Source: Halobacterium sp. CBA1132 (GTDB lineage: Archaea > Halobacteriota > Halobacteria > Halobacteriales > Halobacteriaceae). From it: a stretch of DNA of 64,000 bases. The notes under the pieces are model-generated. The model saw only the letters and a program-made list of their open reading frames with translations, did no database searches and was not told the origin of the DNA. The position numbers and the translations under genes were made by a program. Of this stretch, positions 58,324-64,000 are shown piece by piece (positions within the stretch are counted from its first letter, which is position 1; each line of letters starts with the position of its first letter). The stretch spans positions 62,001 through 126,000 of the forward strand of contig NZ_BCMZ01000002.1 of NCBI RefSeq assembly GCF_001485535.1, written 5' to 3'.

Positions 58324-61260
58324 TTAGAGGAGTTCGTCGAGTTCGCTGTTGTCGACGGTACCAAGTACCGAATCAGCATCGGCGGTTGTGTATTCGAATT
58401 CGTTGGGGTCGACGATGCCGAGGAATACTGCTTTGCCGTTGTTCATCATCAGTGCGTGATTGGCGTCGTTGACGATGACGGTGCCGCCGCCCTTCTGTTC
58501 GTGTACCGTTGCGGCGATGTCTTCTGCTATCTGGTGGCGAATATACTGGCGGCCGTCTGCCGTTTTCTCGAACGGCTGGCCGTCGGCGTCAACGCTGAAT
58601 CGGTAGCCATCCCGTGGACCCGGATACTGGTCACCGACTGAGAGGTCAGCTGTATCCGGAACCGGACGGCGTGTGTTTGGTTCTGGCAGTTCTTCGTCTG
58701 TTGGGTCGCGGACGCAGTCCCAGAACGGTGTGTCGGGGTCCCAATCGCCGGCTTCCCAGTCGCCGTCTGGATCCCATACTAAGTGTGAGACGTCTGCCGT
58801 CGAGAGTTGTTCGTCCCAGTCGTAGTCGCTGAATATCTTCTCGTCAACTGTATCTCGCGCGTAGAGGACGAATAGCTCGGAGGTATTGGTGGGGTCATCT
58901 CCAGTACGAAGGACGCGGCCGAGTGTCTGGATGCGTTGTCGGACGCTGCCAGATGACACGCGTACGATGCCGACGTCGGCATTCGGGACGTCTACTCCCT
59001 CGATCAGTGCTTTGACGCTGAGCATGACGTTGGCGAATCCGTCGTCGTCGAACCACTCTACTGCGAAGTCGTTCCAGGCGTCGCTTCGGTGCCCGGAGTG
59101 ATACATCACTGGGCGATAGTCCGCGTCGAAGAACAGGTCTTCTAGCGCTTGGTCAGCTTTTTCGAGGCCGGGGTATTTTTCGTAGAGGTGCTGGCGGTCT
59201 CCGTACTCCGTTGAGATGTCGCCTGTTCGATAGTTCCGGCCGCGTGATTCTGCTGACGCGACCATTCGTTCGAGTTGCTTGATTCGTTCCTGGAAGACGA
59301 TTGCTTTCCGTGACTCGGAGACCGTCTCTCGCAGCAGCGACAACGAGATCGCTTGCCGGCCGATTGCGTCTGCCACCAATTCGCGTCGTTCCTGCGTGTA
59401 CCGGAAGAAGTCCGAGACCGCCGGCGTTGGCCCATCAACTGAGTTAGCGATCGTCTGCAGCTTCTGCGAAAAACTGCCGTTCAGATCGTAAATCCGATTC
59501 CCGTACCGCATCTCAATGTCAGAAACTGCGTCGCTGACCTTCTCGCTAAGCCGATTGTAGGTCGTCCGTTCCGCATCCGTTAGATCAAACCCGACGTACC
59601 GGACTTTGAATTCGGGGATCAGATTTCGGGCGATTCCCTCGTCGTAGGTGAGTTCGTAGTAGATGTCGCCGAGTTCAGACAAGAGGAGTTCGTCGCTTTC
59701 CGAGTGGTCGTCTTCTCCCGGGTCGGACAGTGGTGTTGCGGAAAGGCCGAGCGACGCTGTGCGAGGATACTCGAAGACGTTCGAGAAGGTGTCTCCCGTA
59801 TAGCGGTGGCATTCGTCGGCCACTAAGAGGTGCTCCTCTACGTTCGCAGCGGCGAGCGTGTCCCCGAGGAAGTCGTCTTTCACGGCGGAGTTGACGATGC
59901 TGACGAGAATTCGATGGTCGTTCTCGAAGCGGTCTTTGTGACCGCCGCCAGCCCAGCCGACGTCATCGGCTGGGACGTTCAGTTTCTCGACGAGTTCCTC
60001 TAACCACTGGTGCATGAGGACCTTCGTCGGGACGAGAATCGTCACAACGCCCTCGGGGTGGTCGTTGAGCCAGCGACGAAGCACCTCAAGCGCCATCACC
60101 GTTTTCCCAGCGCCAGTCACCACTCTCGCGATCCCTTGCTCCGGCGTACGGCTTGCAGCCGCGTCGGATGGAGTGAGCCACTGTTGGGCGGCTTCCTGTT
60201 GCCAGTCATAGAGGTCGAAGTGGTCGGGGAACGAATAGCTGGGGCGATCCGCGCCGGCCCAGCGTTCGAAGTCAGCCCGGGACAGGCCGGCACCTGCAGA
60301 GGATTTCACCCGATAAGCTTCTGCTTCGTCAGCCGCACCCGCAATTCGCTCAAGGACGCTCGTCGACAGGCCAGACAAGCTATCACCGGTGAATGACGGG
60401 AATTGCTCGCGAATCTGGTCACGTAGCTGTCCACGCTTGTTTTCGGCCTCAACGTACTTCTCGGCACGACGGATCGTCGGCTGTGAGACGTCGTTTTCGT
60501 AGGCCGTCTTCTTGAGGTAATCCCGTCGGAACGTATCGAAGAGCTGGCGGTGCCGGCCATGTCCGCCAGATTCCCGGTAAATGTAGTATTTCGCCAGGTC
60601 TCGTTTCACCGTGTCCGAAGGCGGGTCTACGTTGGCTCCTTCTTGCTTGAGCCATCGTTCGAACGTCGGGAGCAAGTCAGCGTTCCGGAGCCGGTCTTGC
60701 CATCGGTCCGTTGGGGTCGTGGCGACATATCCAGCATCGGTTTGCCGTGCGGCCCCGAGGTTCGCGAGCAGTGTTGGGAAGCCACGGATCTTCTGGTCGT
60801 TGAACTCGTACTCGTGCTCGTCGACGAGGTGCTGTTCGATTTCTCCGCGCTCGAGTGGGCCGTCACTGTGCACCAGAATGCGGTGGATCGCTCGAAGGCC
60901 ATCGATCCCCTCCGGGAAGCCGCCATCGATCACCCATGCGCGCTTGATCCCATACCAGAGGAAAGTCTTGAAGTCGATTTCGTCGGCGTGCCAATCGTGG
61001 CCGAATTGCCAGACGGTGATCGTTCCGTCTGATTGTTGGCGGAGGACACCGAGTTGAACGTACGTCGAGACGATCCGCCGCATATAGGCGGCTGAATAGC
61101 GGCCTTCCTCGTCGGGTTTCTGTAGTCGCTCACGGGCTTGCTCGACGAACTGTGATTTTGGTAAGCCCCCATCCGAATCAATCGCGAGTGCAACGAAGGC
61201 TTCGCTGCGCCGCTTCGTGCGTTCAACTCCGAACAGCGGTGGCGGAAAGCGTCGACCCAC
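58324..61260 (-). CDS. Large SF2 DEAD/DEAH-type helicase with N-terminal winged-helix-like region
   Basis: A GTG start at 61260 gives 978 residues. The first 340 residues are helical and contain short winged-helix-like units (YMRRIVSTYVQLGVLRQQSD; LVDEHEYEFNDQKIRGFPTL). The helicase core has TGAGKT (382-387), DECH (482-485), LSATP (506-510) and the motif VI-like QTLGRVLRTGDD. A C-terminal 150-residue extension follows. The architecture resembles type III restriction or defence helicases, but no nuclease motif is evident. It lies 6 bases downstream of the 282-residue gene and forms an operon with it. A DNA-translocating defence role is inference. Confidence 0.75.
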   Translation of the reverse strand: MGRRFPPPLFGVERTKRRSEAFVALAIDSDGGLPKSQFVEQARERLQKPDEEGRYSAAYMRRIVSTYVQLGVLRQQSDGTITVWQFGHDWHADEIDFKTFLWYGIKRAWVIDGGFPEGIDGLRAIHRILVHSDGPLERGEIEQHLVDEHEYEFNDQKIRGFPTLLANLGAARQTDAGYVATTPTDRWQDRLRNADLLPTFERWLKQEGANVDPPSDTVKRDLAKYYIYRESGGHGRHRQLFDTFRRDYLKKTAYENDVSQPTIRRAEKYVEAENKRGQLRDQIREQFPSFTGDSLSGLSTSVLERIAGAADEAEAYRVKSSAGAGLSRADFERWAGADRPSYSFPDHFDLYDWQQEAAQQWLTPSDAAASRTPEQGIARVVTGAGKTVMALEVLRRWLNDHPEGVVTILVPTKVLMHQWLEELVEKLNVPADDVGWAGGGHKDRFENDHRILVSIVNSAVKDDFLGDTLAAANVEEHLLVADECHRYTGDTFSNVFEYPRTASLGLSATPLSDPGEDDHSESDELLLSELGDIYYELTYDEGIARNLIPEFKVRYVGFDLTDAERTTYNRLSEKVSDAVSDIEMRYGNRIYDLNGSFSQKLQTIANSVDGPTPAVSDFFRYTQERRELVADAIGRQAISLSLLRETVSESRKAIVFQERIKQLERMVASAESRGRNYRTGDISTEYGDRQHLYEKYPGLEKADQALEDLFFDADYRPVMYHSGHRSDAWNDFAVEWFDDDGFANVMLSVKALIEGVDVPNADVGIVRVSSGSVRQRIQTLGRVLRTGDDPTNTSELFVLYARDTVDEKIFSDYDWDEQLSTADVSHLVWDPDGDWEAGDWDPDTPFWDCVRDPTDEELPEPNTRRPVPDTADLSVGDQYPGPRDGYRFSVDADGQPFEKTADGRQYIRHQIAEDIAATVHEQKGGGTVIVNDANHALMMNNGKAVFLGIVDPNEFEYTTADADSVLGTVDNSELDELL

Positions 61261-61266
61261 TAATAG

Positions 61267-62115
61267 TCACCAGTCCTCTGGATCGTCCGGTGTATGGGTC
61301 TTGGTCGCGTCGTCGATCCGATGTTCGTCCGGATCAATTTCTTCCGTTGGCCCGAGTGATCCGGACCACGAATCTAGCTGTGCGCGCTCGTCTGCGGACA
61401 GCGCATCGGTGAGAGACCGCGGTTCACTCACCTCGAGCGGAACGGTATCGAGCGACCCGACATAGACGGGGAGGCGTTCGACGCCGTGTTCTCGTCGAAG
61501 CACGATGATGTTCTTGATTACTCGTGGGAGGTTGTGGAGTTGCTCTCGCGTAGCTTCAGGATTGGGGGGGTCTTCGACGAGTGTGATGACATCATTCCAG
61601 GGGGTGACGCGGAAGGAACCACCGGATGGTTTGAGGCGTTGGAGTGTCGTCATCACGTCGTCCGGGAGCTCTGTTTTGACGGGGTGGCGTTTGTGCGTTT
61701 GTGGGTGTTGCCACCAGATGCGGTCTTCGCTGAAGGAGAACTTTGAGCCGTCGTAGACGCTGGGCCAGAGGTCGCCAGACGAAAGGCCTTCGGGCCGGAT
61801 GTCGACGCTGAATTCGGTCTGATCTTCTGGGATGAGTTTCCCTGATAGTGAGAGGTCCCCGACGTAGAGGTCTTCGTAGTCATCACCATCCTCGATGCGG
61901 GTGATGACTGCACCAGCCTCTGTGACGCGGACGCGCCCGCCGAGTCGTTTGAGAGAGAGGAGGTCTTCGACGAGTTCGTCGGGTGTTGGTTCGACGTAGA
62001 GGCGTTCGGTCCCATTGTAGACTTGCCACCAGACATCGCCGTTTGGATTTGTCTGCAGGCGGTAGCCGCGATAGTAGCTCGACCACTCGTCGCCGGGACT
62101 GGACGTAGCGTTCAT
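61267..62115 (-). CDS. Uncharacterised protein of helicase operon, 282 aa
   Basis: The start at 62115 (MNATSSPGDEW) is preferred; the upstream frame to 62301 covers the promoter. The protein contains two similar halves: YYRGYRLQTNPNGDVWWQVY with RVRVTEAGAVITRIED, and FSFSEDRIWWQHPQTHKRHP with FRVTPWNDVITLVEDP. This suggests an internal duplication of a beta-rich domain with paired tryptophans. The family is not known to me. It is translated with the helicase and divergent from the SNF2 helicase, so it is probably a component of one system. Confidence 0.6.
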   Translation of the reverse strand: MNATSSPGDEWSSYYRGYRLQTNPNGDVWWQVYNGTERLYVEPTPDELVEDLLSLKRLGGRVRVTEAGAVITRIEDGDDYEDLYVGDLSLSGKLIPEDQTEFSVDIRPEGLSSGDLWPSVYDGSKFSFSEDRIWWQHPQTHKRHPVKTELPDDVMTTLQRLKPSGGSFRVTPWNDVITLVEDPPNPEATREQLHNLPRVIKNIIVLRREHGVERLPVYVGSLDTVPLEVSEPRSLTDALSADERAQLDSWSGSLGPTEEIDPDEHRIDDATKTHTPDDPEDW

Positions 62116-62283
62116 TTGGGGACCTCGGTTGTCGTCTATGTTCAATTCAGAGATGGGACATAAAGAGTGTGTTGGGATTTTCGCCTGACAGCTTTCAGAC
62201 GCCTCCGTCGTGGAACCATATAATCCGGGTAGATGTCCGGGAGCGACAATTATAACTTGGGCGAAAGACACTCGAATAGCAGG

Positions 62284-64000
62284 ATGGCAACGGGGGACCA
62301 ATCCGGATCTGACGTTACCGCGAACTGGTCAATCGACGACCCACCTTCTCTCGACGCTTCGACGCAGTCCGACGCGACCGCTCACATTCAAGCGCTCCAA
62401 GCCCACCGCTTCGGAGCCACGCAAAGCGAACAGGAACTGCTCGCCGTCGAGGAGCTCAAAGATAAGGTCAAACTCCTCGACCACCAGCTCTCCGCCGCCC
62501 ACCGCGCAATCACAAACATGGGCCGTGGACTACTGTTCGCCGACGAAGTCGGACTCGGGAAGACCATCGAAATCGGGATGGTGCTCAAAGAACTCGACTT
62601 ACGGGATACGCGAGACAGCTTCCTCGTTCTCACACCCGCCCAGCTCGCCCCACAGTGGCAACAAGAACTTGACGAGAAGTTCGACCTCGACTTCGTCTGC
62701 AACTACGACGACGAATTCCAAGGCTTCGACGCCCACAACAGAATTGTCGCCAGCGTCGACACTGCGAAAAGCAGTCGGTACATTGAGGATGTTTTGAGTC
62801 GCCGCTGGGACGCGCTCGTCCTCGACGAGGCGCATTACGTCCGCAACGAGGACACAAACCGGTACTCTCTCATCGAGCAAATCGAATACGAGGAGGCCTT
62901 TTTCGCTACCGCAACTCCGATCCAGAACGACATCACCGATCTCTACAATATTATTAACCTCATTCGGCCAGGCTTGCTCGGCACACCGAGTGAATTCGAA
63001 GAACGATACGTGGCCGATGGCGACGGCACACAGATTAAGAACGCCGACGCTCTCCAACGGAAGCTCGATCGCGTGATGATTCGGAACCGGCGTGAAGAGA
63101 CGGACATCGATTTCACGAACCGGGAAGTCCGCACGAACACGTTCGATCCCACGGCCGCCGAACAGGAACTGTACGGCACTGTCACGAACTACGTCCAATC
63201 AAACTACTCCAGTGACGACGCGAAACACCTCGTGCTCCTGCTCCTCCAGAAGGAAGTTGTGAGCAGCCCGAGCGCAGTCCTCGGGACGGTCAACAAATGG
63301 CTCAACGGCGAGGGCTCGACAACCGTCTCGAAGCGTGAACGCGAGCAACTCCGCGAGATCAAACAGGCGGCGAATGAAATCGCGGACACCACCAAACAAC
63401 AACGGCTCCGTGAGGTCGTCACGACGATTCACGATCAACTCGAAACGACGCGCATTGTCGTGTTCACGCAGTTCCGACAGACCCAGCAGGAAGTCGCTGA
63501 AAGCGTACGCAAACTCGACCAACCAGTCCACGTGGTGAACGGGGATTGTTCGAGTACCGAGAAGGAGGCCATTGTCTCTGATTTCGAATCAGAGGGCGGC
63601 GTCCTCGTCGCTACAGACTCAATCAGTGAAGGGCGGAACATGCAGTTCTGTAACGTGATGGTGAACTACGATCTTCCCTGGAATCCGATGAAGGTCGAAC
63701 AGCGAATCGGCCGTATCGACCGGATCGGACAAGACCGCGACGTCCACGTGTTCAACCTCGCACTAACTGGGACCGTCGAAGAACACGTCTTAGACAAACT
63801 CTACGGGAAAATCAACCTCTTCACACAGTCGATCGGTGGACTCCGGGAGATCCTGTCTCGGATGGAGAAATCCGGCGCTGACTTCGAACGAGAAGTCTTC
63901 GACCGCGTCCGTACCGCCGACGACCGCGTAGAACTCGAGAATAACTTCGAGGAGATGGCTGTCGACCTCGAGGAGAACAAGGAAGCAGCCCAGAAGATGA
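62284..64000 (+). CDS. SNF2/RapA-type helicase, 3' end outside window
   Basis: The ATG at 62284 opens a frame that continues past the window end (about 572 codons visible). Motifs are DEVGLGKT (87-94), DEAH (181-184), a motif III-like FFATATPIQND, a helicase C domain with VVFTQFRQTQQEVAES, and QRIGRIDRIGQ. This is the RapA/HepA-like SNF2 layout seen in several defence operons, including DISARM-related ones. Genes beyond the window (for example phospholipase D, methylase or ATPase genes) would decide the system. It diverges from the 282-residue gene across a 168-base promoter region. Confidence 0.85.
   Translation, partial: MATGDQSGSDVTANWSIDDPPSLDASTQSDATAHIQALQAHRFGATQSEQELLAVEELKDKVKLLDHQLSAAHRAITNMGRGLLFADEVGLGKTIEIGMVLKELDLRDTRDSFLVLTPAQLAPQWQQELDEKFDLDFVCNYDDEFQGFDAHNRIVASVDTAKSSRYIEDVLSRRWDALVLDEAHYVRNEDTNRYSLIEQIEYEEAFFATATPIQNDITDLYNIINLIRPGLLGTPSEFEERYVADGDGTQIKNADALQRKLDRVMIRNRREETDIDFTNREVRTNTFDPTAAEQELYGTVTNYVQSNYSSDDAKHLVLLLLQKEVVSSPSAVLGTVNKWLNGEGSTTVSKREREQLREIKQAANEIADTTKQQRLREVVTTIHDQLETTRIVVFTQFRQTQQEVAESVRKLDQPVHVVNGDCSSTEKEAIVSDFESEGGVLVATDSISEGRNMQFCNVMVNYDLPWNPMKVEQRIGRIDRIGQDRDVHVFNLALTGTVEEHVLDKLYGKINLFTQSIGGLREILSRMEKSGADFEREVFDRVRTADDRVELENNFEEMAVDLEENKEAAQKM

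What the first reader, a model, noticed from the sequence alone, without database searches (positions are those of the whole stretch)
58324..64000. Two-helicase module with an unknown duplicated protein: candidate defence system
A 978-residue SF2 helicase and a 282-residue protein of two similar tryptophan-rich halves form one operon, divergent from a RapA-type SNF2 helicase. SNF2 helicases of this kind occur in DISARM-like and related systems, but the partner protein and the large helicase do not obviously match a named set. The window ends before the SNF2 operon is complete.
Basis: inference. Interest (0 to 1): 0.65.

Follow-up and report, generated by a model that had tools for sequence, protein, structure and literature searches.

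The report
Haloarchaeal two-helicase candidate defence cassette
A six-gene cassette in a salt-loving archaeon, built from two DNA motors, two copies of an unknown tryptophan-rich protein, a zinc-rich scaffold and a broken restriction-enzyme domain, recurs as a unit in unrelated haloarchaea beside known antiviral systems and is probably an undescribed defence system.

Summary
The genes are an SF2 helicase (978 aa) and a 282-aa protein of two homologous halves (DupW1). Diverging from them is an operon with 4-bp gene overlaps: SNF2 motor, 1095-aa Cys-rich protein, Mrr-type protein and a second DupW. The SF2 N-terminal domain occurs in 22 of 394 Halobacteria genomes. All 22 also carry DupW2, against 1 of the other 372. 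Two modules recur: an obligate trio (SF2+DupW1+DupW2) and a quartet (SNF2+Cys+Mrr+DupW2). The quartet was found without the trio only as one remnant. New findings: SNF2 plus the Cys protein form a split BrxHII/RapA-type helicase; the Mrr site is degenerate in all 14 copies, while a related three-gene form keeps it intact; DupW matches no known family or fold; the SF2 N-terminus is winged-helix and weakly resembles type IIS restriction-enzyme recognition domains. It is not DISARM, Hma/BR, Pbe/Dnd or Zorya. It sits beside BREX-5 here and beside Dnd-Pbe, RM or BrxHII genes elsewhere. Most likely it is a mobile helicase-based antiviral system that acts without a nuclease of its own. Function is inferred; nothing was tested experimentally.

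The parts
58324..61260 (-). SF2 helicase, 978 aa: winged-helix N-terminal domain (1-340), XPB-like helicase core (343-805), C-terminal region unassigned
61267..62115 (-). DupW1, 282 aa, two homologous halves, no known family
62116..62283 (.). divergent intergenic region; TATA-like TTATAACTT lies about 30 bp before the SNF2 ATG at 62284 (the start conserved in homologues)
   Evidence: by inspection
62233..64000 (+). RapA/BrxHII/DrmD-type SNF2 motor, 607 aa as the longest ORF (conserved start 62284); its stop lies 56 bp past the window end. Further genes of the cassette lie outside the window, in extrapolated coordinates: 1095-aa Cys-rich protein 64053-67340 + (G000:C2:126053-129340; N-terminal 400 aa = separated C-terminal half of a BrxHII/RapA helicase), degenerate Mrr protein 339 aa 67337-68356 +, DupW2 298 aa 68353-69249 +
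   Evidence: outside genes:

Best explanation
This is a mobile, helicase-based antiviral (anti-foreign-DNA) system of haloarchaea with two modules. Core: SF2 (an XPB-like helicase with a winged-helix, probably DNA-reading N-terminal domain) with DupW1 and DupW2. Second module: a RapA/BrxHII-type SNF2 translocase split into two proteins (SNF2 + Cys protein), plus a dead Mrr domain and a DupW2. Proposed working: SF2-DupW recognises incoming or replicating foreign DNA through the winged-helix domain and the W-rich DupW domains; the SNF2-Cys-Mrr complex is recruited (the dead Mrr as DNA-binding or docking part, the Cys array as scaffold) and translocates; together they strip or unwind the target and block its replication or transcription without cutting it, or hand it to a nuclease encoded elsewhere. 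Shown: gene content, co-occurrence, two-module structure, split-helicase homology, degenerate Mrr site, intact ATPase motifs, defence-gene neighbourhoods. Inferred: defence role (about 0.8), complex formation (about 0.6), nuclease-free action (about 0.4), DNA reading by the SF2 N-terminus (about 0.4).
For: Co-occurrence: SF2 N-terminus in 22/394 Halobacteria, all with DupW2, against 1/372 without SF2 (Fisher P=4e-35, not corrected for phylogeny). Patchy spread across 18 genera, with 0 of the 12 other sampled genomes of the window's own genus and up to 89% identity to Halorhabdus, a different family, so it moves between lineages. Distances of all six proteins correlate across 12 complete loci (Mantel r 0.75-0.94). 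Defence neighbours: BREX-5 here; DndCDEA+Pbe (L038/L089), Pbe-like genes (L039), type I RM subunit (L042), BrxHII-like helicase (L041), orphan/type II methylases (L036, L057). SNF2+Cys = split BrxHII-type helicase: hhalign 97.5%, E=9e-12; control 0.3%. Mrr degenerate in 14/14 against intact E..D..QAK in four of five short-form loci compared. SF2 N-terminal model pLDDT 86; highest-probability PDB matches are BpuJI recognition domain (0.77-0.94) with FokI at 0.47.
Against: No experiment links it to virus resistance. The BpuJI/FokI resemblance has Foldseek E of 0.1-0.3 and TM about 0.3-0.4, so it is only a hint. DupW has no function assigned, and a nuclease activity in DupW or in the SF2 C-terminus is not excluded. 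No self/non-self mark is encoded in the cassette. Defence neighbours could reflect island clustering rather than shared function, and no enrichment statistic was computed. The Mantel values partly reflect shared ancestry of the loci.
Confidence: 0.5

Rival explanations
1. A restriction-like system that cuts: the motors translocate on unprotected DNA and an active nuclease (Mrr, or a domain in DupW or the SF2 C-terminus) cleaves it.
For: The three-gene relatives SNF2+Cys(675 aa)+Mrr keep an intact Mrr motif, so the SNF2-Cys module did work with a nuclease. ZorD, a SNF2+Mrr protein, is a weak profile match to our Mrr.
Against: In all 14 copies compared the Mrr helix E and the motif Q are lost and the lysine is kept in only 3. 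No other nuclease family was found in the cassette by Pfam, although the SF2 C-terminus and DupW are unassigned.
Confidence: 0.2
2. A maintenance or repair function of extrachromosomal replicons: a RapA-like and an XPB-like motor that clear RNA polymerase or damage on plasmids and secondary chromosomes.
For: Core folds resemble RapA and XPB; several copies sit on plasmids.
Against: Patchy distribution, copies broken by insertions or deleted in relatives, co-location with BREX, Dnd-Pbe and RM, and relatedness of the SNF2-Cys pair to the motor of DUF499/DUF1156 defence systems are untypical of housekeeping.
Confidence: 0.15
3. A restriction module for phosphorothioate-modified or unmodified DNA, a relative of PbeABCD.
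For: SF2 core is nearest to PbeA in PADLOC (136 bits); one trio lies directly before dndCDEA (L038) and one beside a Pbe-like set (L039).
Against: Only 2 of 18 genomes examined have DndC. In G030 the dnd locus is followed by its own PbeA and PbeC. PADLOC finds no PbeC-type partner in the cassette itself, and true PbeA scores 700 bits against 136 here.
Confidence: 0.04
4. Two independent systems that merely sit side by side (trio and quartet).
For: The trio occurs without the quartet in 8 of 22 genomes, and in two genomes the modules lie several kb apart.
Against: The quartet was found without the trio in only one genome, as a remnant (G320). Both modules carry a DupW. In the compact loci a single DupW2 is encoded at the end of the quartet and the trio's own copy is gone, so the modules share it.
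Confidence: 0.11

Closest known systems
DUF499-centred BREX-related (BR) / Hma systems (PMC12839542)
   Same: SNF2 motor of the BrxHII/RapA kind. In haloarchaea the same SNF2 + separate C-terminal half (about 400 aa) pair sits beside a DUF499 ATPase and/or DUF1156 methylase in all 8 loci inspected.
   Different: Our cassette has no DUF499 ATPase and no methylase. The C-terminal half is extended by a long Cys array, and SF2, DupW and a dead Mrr are added.
DISARM (DrmD)
   Same: SNF2 resembles DrmD: 268 bits, below the family cut-off of 610.
   Different: No DrmA, DrmB, DrmC or methylase.
PbeABCD / Dnd (PMC10853773, PMC6459918)
   Same: SF2 helicase core nearest to PbeA.
   Different: No PbeC in the cassette; dndC absent from 16 of 18 genomes.
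Zorya type I, ZorD
   Same: Combination of SNF2 motor and Mrr-type domain.
   Different: Separate genes, degenerate Mrr site, no ZorA/B/C matches.
XPB helicases (archaeal XPBII)
   Same: Helicase core of SF2 (E=3.6e-21).
   Different: Different N-terminus (winged-helix, about 340 aa) and C-terminus; always linked to DupW.

Membership tests
DISARM | DrmB (DUF1998) and DrmC (PLD nuclease) | tested here: not met
   No DUF1998 or PLD match in the six proteins.
DISARM | DrmA helicase and DrmMI/MII methylase | tested here: not met
   No methylase in the cassette; DrmA profile hits SNF2 only through the shared core (153 bits).
DISARM | DrmD SNF2 helicase | tested here: not met
   NF038317 267.8 bits against a cut-off of 610.
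BR / Hma (DUF499-DUF1156-SNF2) | DUF499 AAA ATPase and DUF1156 N6-methylase in the locus | tested here: not met
   Absent from the cassette and not among genes conserved around relatives.
BR / Hma (DUF499-DUF1156-SNF2) | BrxHII/RapA-type SNF2 motor with its C-terminal half | tested here: met
   Split over SNF2 and Cys proteins; hhalign 97.5%, E=9e-12.
PbeABCD | PbeA over full length with its partners PbeB-D | tested here: not met
   SF2 matches PbeA over the helicase core only (136 bits); no PbeC match in the cassette.
PbeABCD | Dnd modification genes in the genome | tested here: not met
   DndC in 2 of 18 genomes, not in the window's own.
Zorya type I | ZorA/ZorB motor and ZorC with ZorD | tested here: not met
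   No ZorA/B/C match in the six proteins; ZorD only by shared domains.
BREX type 5 | PglZ, PglX, BrxC-type ATPases, BrxHII | tested here: not met
   A BREX-5 locus lies downstream as a separate gene set; none of its proteins is in the cassette.
Mrr restriction endonucleases | Catalytic E, D and (Q/E)xK residues | tested here: not met
   Fold matched by Pfam (25.9 bits), but E and Q lost in 14/14 and K kept in 3/14.
antiviral defence system (function) | Measured protection against virus or plasmid | not testable with these tools
   No experimental data.

The most novel reading that the evidence does not exclude
A nuclease-free immune system with two ATP motors. An XPB-like helicase carries a restriction-enzyme-like DNA-recognition domain and works with a protein family of a new fold (DupW). 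It recruits a split RapA/BrxHII translocase whose ancestral nuclease partner (Mrr) has been converted into a structural or DNA-binding subunit.
Probability: 0.25. Interest if true: 0.75.

Novelty: new variant of a known kind. Interest (0 to 1): 0.55.

Why it matters
The cassette adds an undescribed protein family (DupW) and an obligate partner helicase to archaeal immunity, of which little has been tested. It also exposes a wider haloarchaeal pattern: the BrxHII/RapA-type motor is split in two, and the half-gene pair is reused in at least three settings (DUF499/DUF1156 loci, a three-gene form with active Mrr, and this six-gene form with dead Mrr). That series makes a directly testable case of a restriction nuclease being lost while the motor is kept, which bears on how defence helicases protect without cutting.

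Tried and rejected
DISARM, BR/Hma, Pbe/Dnd, Zorya and BREX membership: tested and not met. PCNA-like fold for DupW: PCNA entries fill the Foldseek list, but E>=0.18, probability <=0.11 and TM about 0.15, so rejected as noise. DupW hits in G167 and G150: G167 is an out-of-frame hit opposite a CobW-type gene, and no DupW-like ORF was seen in the G150 locus. DupW in viruses: none found. AddAB as an obligate part: an AddAB-like helicase-nuclease pair flanks 6 loci, but the copy here is 92-96% identical to one beside a trio whose DupW1 is only 49% identical, so it moves independently. Apparent truncation of the BREX-5 PglX was an artefact of my locus border. A first Mantel run mixed in a BREX helicase and was redone on 12 complete loci.

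Full report
What is there. The window is G000:C2:62001-126000 of a 3.0-Mb haloarchaeal assembly in four contigs. Reading on past 64000 gives SNF2 (stop at extrapolated window position 64056), then a 1095-aa Cys-rich protein (64053-67340), a 339-aa protein (67337-68356) and a 298-aa protein (68353-69249). Each gene overlaps the next by 4 bp. After that come transposon-type genes, an AddA/AddB-like helicase-nuclease pair and a BREX type 5 locus (BrxHII 2097 bits; PglZ-5 1180 bits).

The 282-aa protein. Its two halves are homologous (hhalign 98.1%, E=1e-13; shuffled controls up to 2.2%). It is homologous to the 298-aa protein at the far end of the second operon (98%, E=2e-13). I call them DupW1 and DupW2. 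Neither matches Pfam, NCBIfam or PADLOC, nor, for DupW1, any solved structure by sequence. AlphaFold2 gives DupW1 a confident beta-rich model (pLDDT 83) without any PDB or viral fold match at E<=0.001.

Distribution. DupW1 was found in 16 true loci among 294 Halobacteria genomes; of the two weak extra hits one is out of frame and the other has no DupW-like ORF. The SF2 N-terminal domain was found in 22 of 394 genomes, all of which also have DupW2; DupW2 without SF2 occurs in one more genome, G320, as a remnant. A scan of GTDB species genomes returned only haloarchaea, and viral contigs gave nothing. The set is patchy: 18 genera, and none of the 12 other sampled genomes of the window's own genus. 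Halorhabdus tiamatea, of another family, carries the same six genes at 69-89% identity on a plasmid. There they are annotated as hypothetical proteins, 'SNF2-related', 'restriction endonuclease' and 'DEAD/DEAH box helicase'. This is the behaviour of a mobile cassette.

Two modules. Fourteen of the 22 genomes have all six genes or their remains: compact in most, collinear in L034, decayed in G291 and G315, spread out in G339 and G346. Eight have only DupW1-DupW2-SF2; in one of these, G125, a scar joins the start of SNF2 to the end of DupW2, so the quartet was deleted there. So SF2+DupW1+DupW2 is the obligate trio and SNF2+Cys+Mrr(+DupW2) a second module that depends on it. Protein distances of all six genes agree across 12 complete loci (Mantel r 0.75-0.94).

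The Cys-rich protein explained. Relatives of its first 400 residues occur in 72 of 394 genomes, next to an SNF2 gene in the loci checked. A profile of this region aligns with the C-terminal half of BrxHII over 244 columns (97.5%, E=9e-12; unrelated control 0.3%). This covers both the alpha/beta part and the long coiled coil that PMC12839542 describes for BrxHII and RapA. Hence SNF2 and the Cys protein are the two halves of one RapA/BrxHII-type motor, with a long Cys array added. Short versions (about 400 aa) sit beside DUF499 ATPase and/or DUF1156 methylase genes in all eight loci inspected. A 675-aa version forms a three-gene set with SNF2 and Mrr.

The Mrr protein. In the three-gene set the Mrr site is intact in four of five compared copies (E, D, QAK). 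In all 14 copies of our form E and Q are lost and K is kept in three. I conclude that it is probably not a working nuclease.

The SF2 protein. The core is XPB-like with intact motifs. The N-terminal 345 aa give a confident winged-helix model (pLDDT 86). The highest-probability PDB match is the DNA-recognition domain of BpuJI (up to 0.94), and FokI (0.47) and Nt.BspD6I (0.16) are also listed. E-values are only 0.1-0.7, so this is a hint that the domain reads DNA, not proof.

Is it defence? Evidence is by association: BREX-5 downstream here; DndCDEA with PbeA and PbeC beside L038; Pbe-like genes (L039); a type I RM subunit (L042); a BrxHII-like helicase (L041); methylases (L036, L057). In addition the SNF2-Cys module is kin to motors of known or predicted defence systems. 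I did not compute an enrichment statistic and there is no experiment. It is not phosphorothioate-dependent in general: DndC is in 2 of 18 genomes.

Proposed working. SF2 with DupW recognises foreign DNA; the split SNF2 motor, bridged by DupW2, the Cys array and the dead Mrr, is recruited and moves along it; the result is blocked replication or transcription, or hand-over to a nuclease encoded elsewhere. Only the anatomy and linkage are shown; the steps are inferred. A cutting mechanism through an unrecognised nuclease remains the main rival.

Limits. Searches of the literature covered open-access papers only; ARMADA, BRIGADE, BR and Pbe papers were checked and do not describe this set in the passages read. 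PADLOC is the 2023 version.

Noticed in passing
G000:C2, extrapolated window positions about 78976-100800 (L003:2977 to L004:13752): BREX type 5 locus that looks intact: BrxHII, a 425-aa unassigned protein, PglZ-5, PglX-5, two large ATPases and smaller BREX-like genes, just downstream of the finding.
   Followed up: partly
extrapolated window positions 71971-78787 (L002:15972 into L003): AddA/AddB-like helicase-nuclease pair 92-96% identical to one in Halorussus litoreus (L041/L058), where the neighbouring cassette is only about 50% identical: recent independent transfer. Similar pairs flank the cassette in L056/L087, L086, L136 and L147.
   Followed up: partly
L121-L124: Three-gene set SNF2 + 675-aa Cys protein + Mrr with intact catalytic motif, apparently free-standing: a separate candidate restriction system of haloarchaea.
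   Followed up: partly
L126-L133: Haloarchaeal DUF499/DUF1156 loci in which the BrxHII-type helicase is split into SNF2 plus a separate coiled-coil, zinc-ribbon-like C-terminal half; not mentioned in the passages of PMC12839542 read here.
   Followed up: partly
L040:1531-3810, L033:2922, L048:637-2832, L085:12276: Metallo-beta-lactamase-fold protein (about 760 aa) adjoining several copies of the cassette; vWA+DUF5797 protein beside L029 and L033.
   Followed up: partly
L147:9069-10849: Scar where the start of SNF2 is joined to the last 31 residues of DupW2, next to a lone DupW2-like gene: natural deletion of the quartet.
   Followed up: yes
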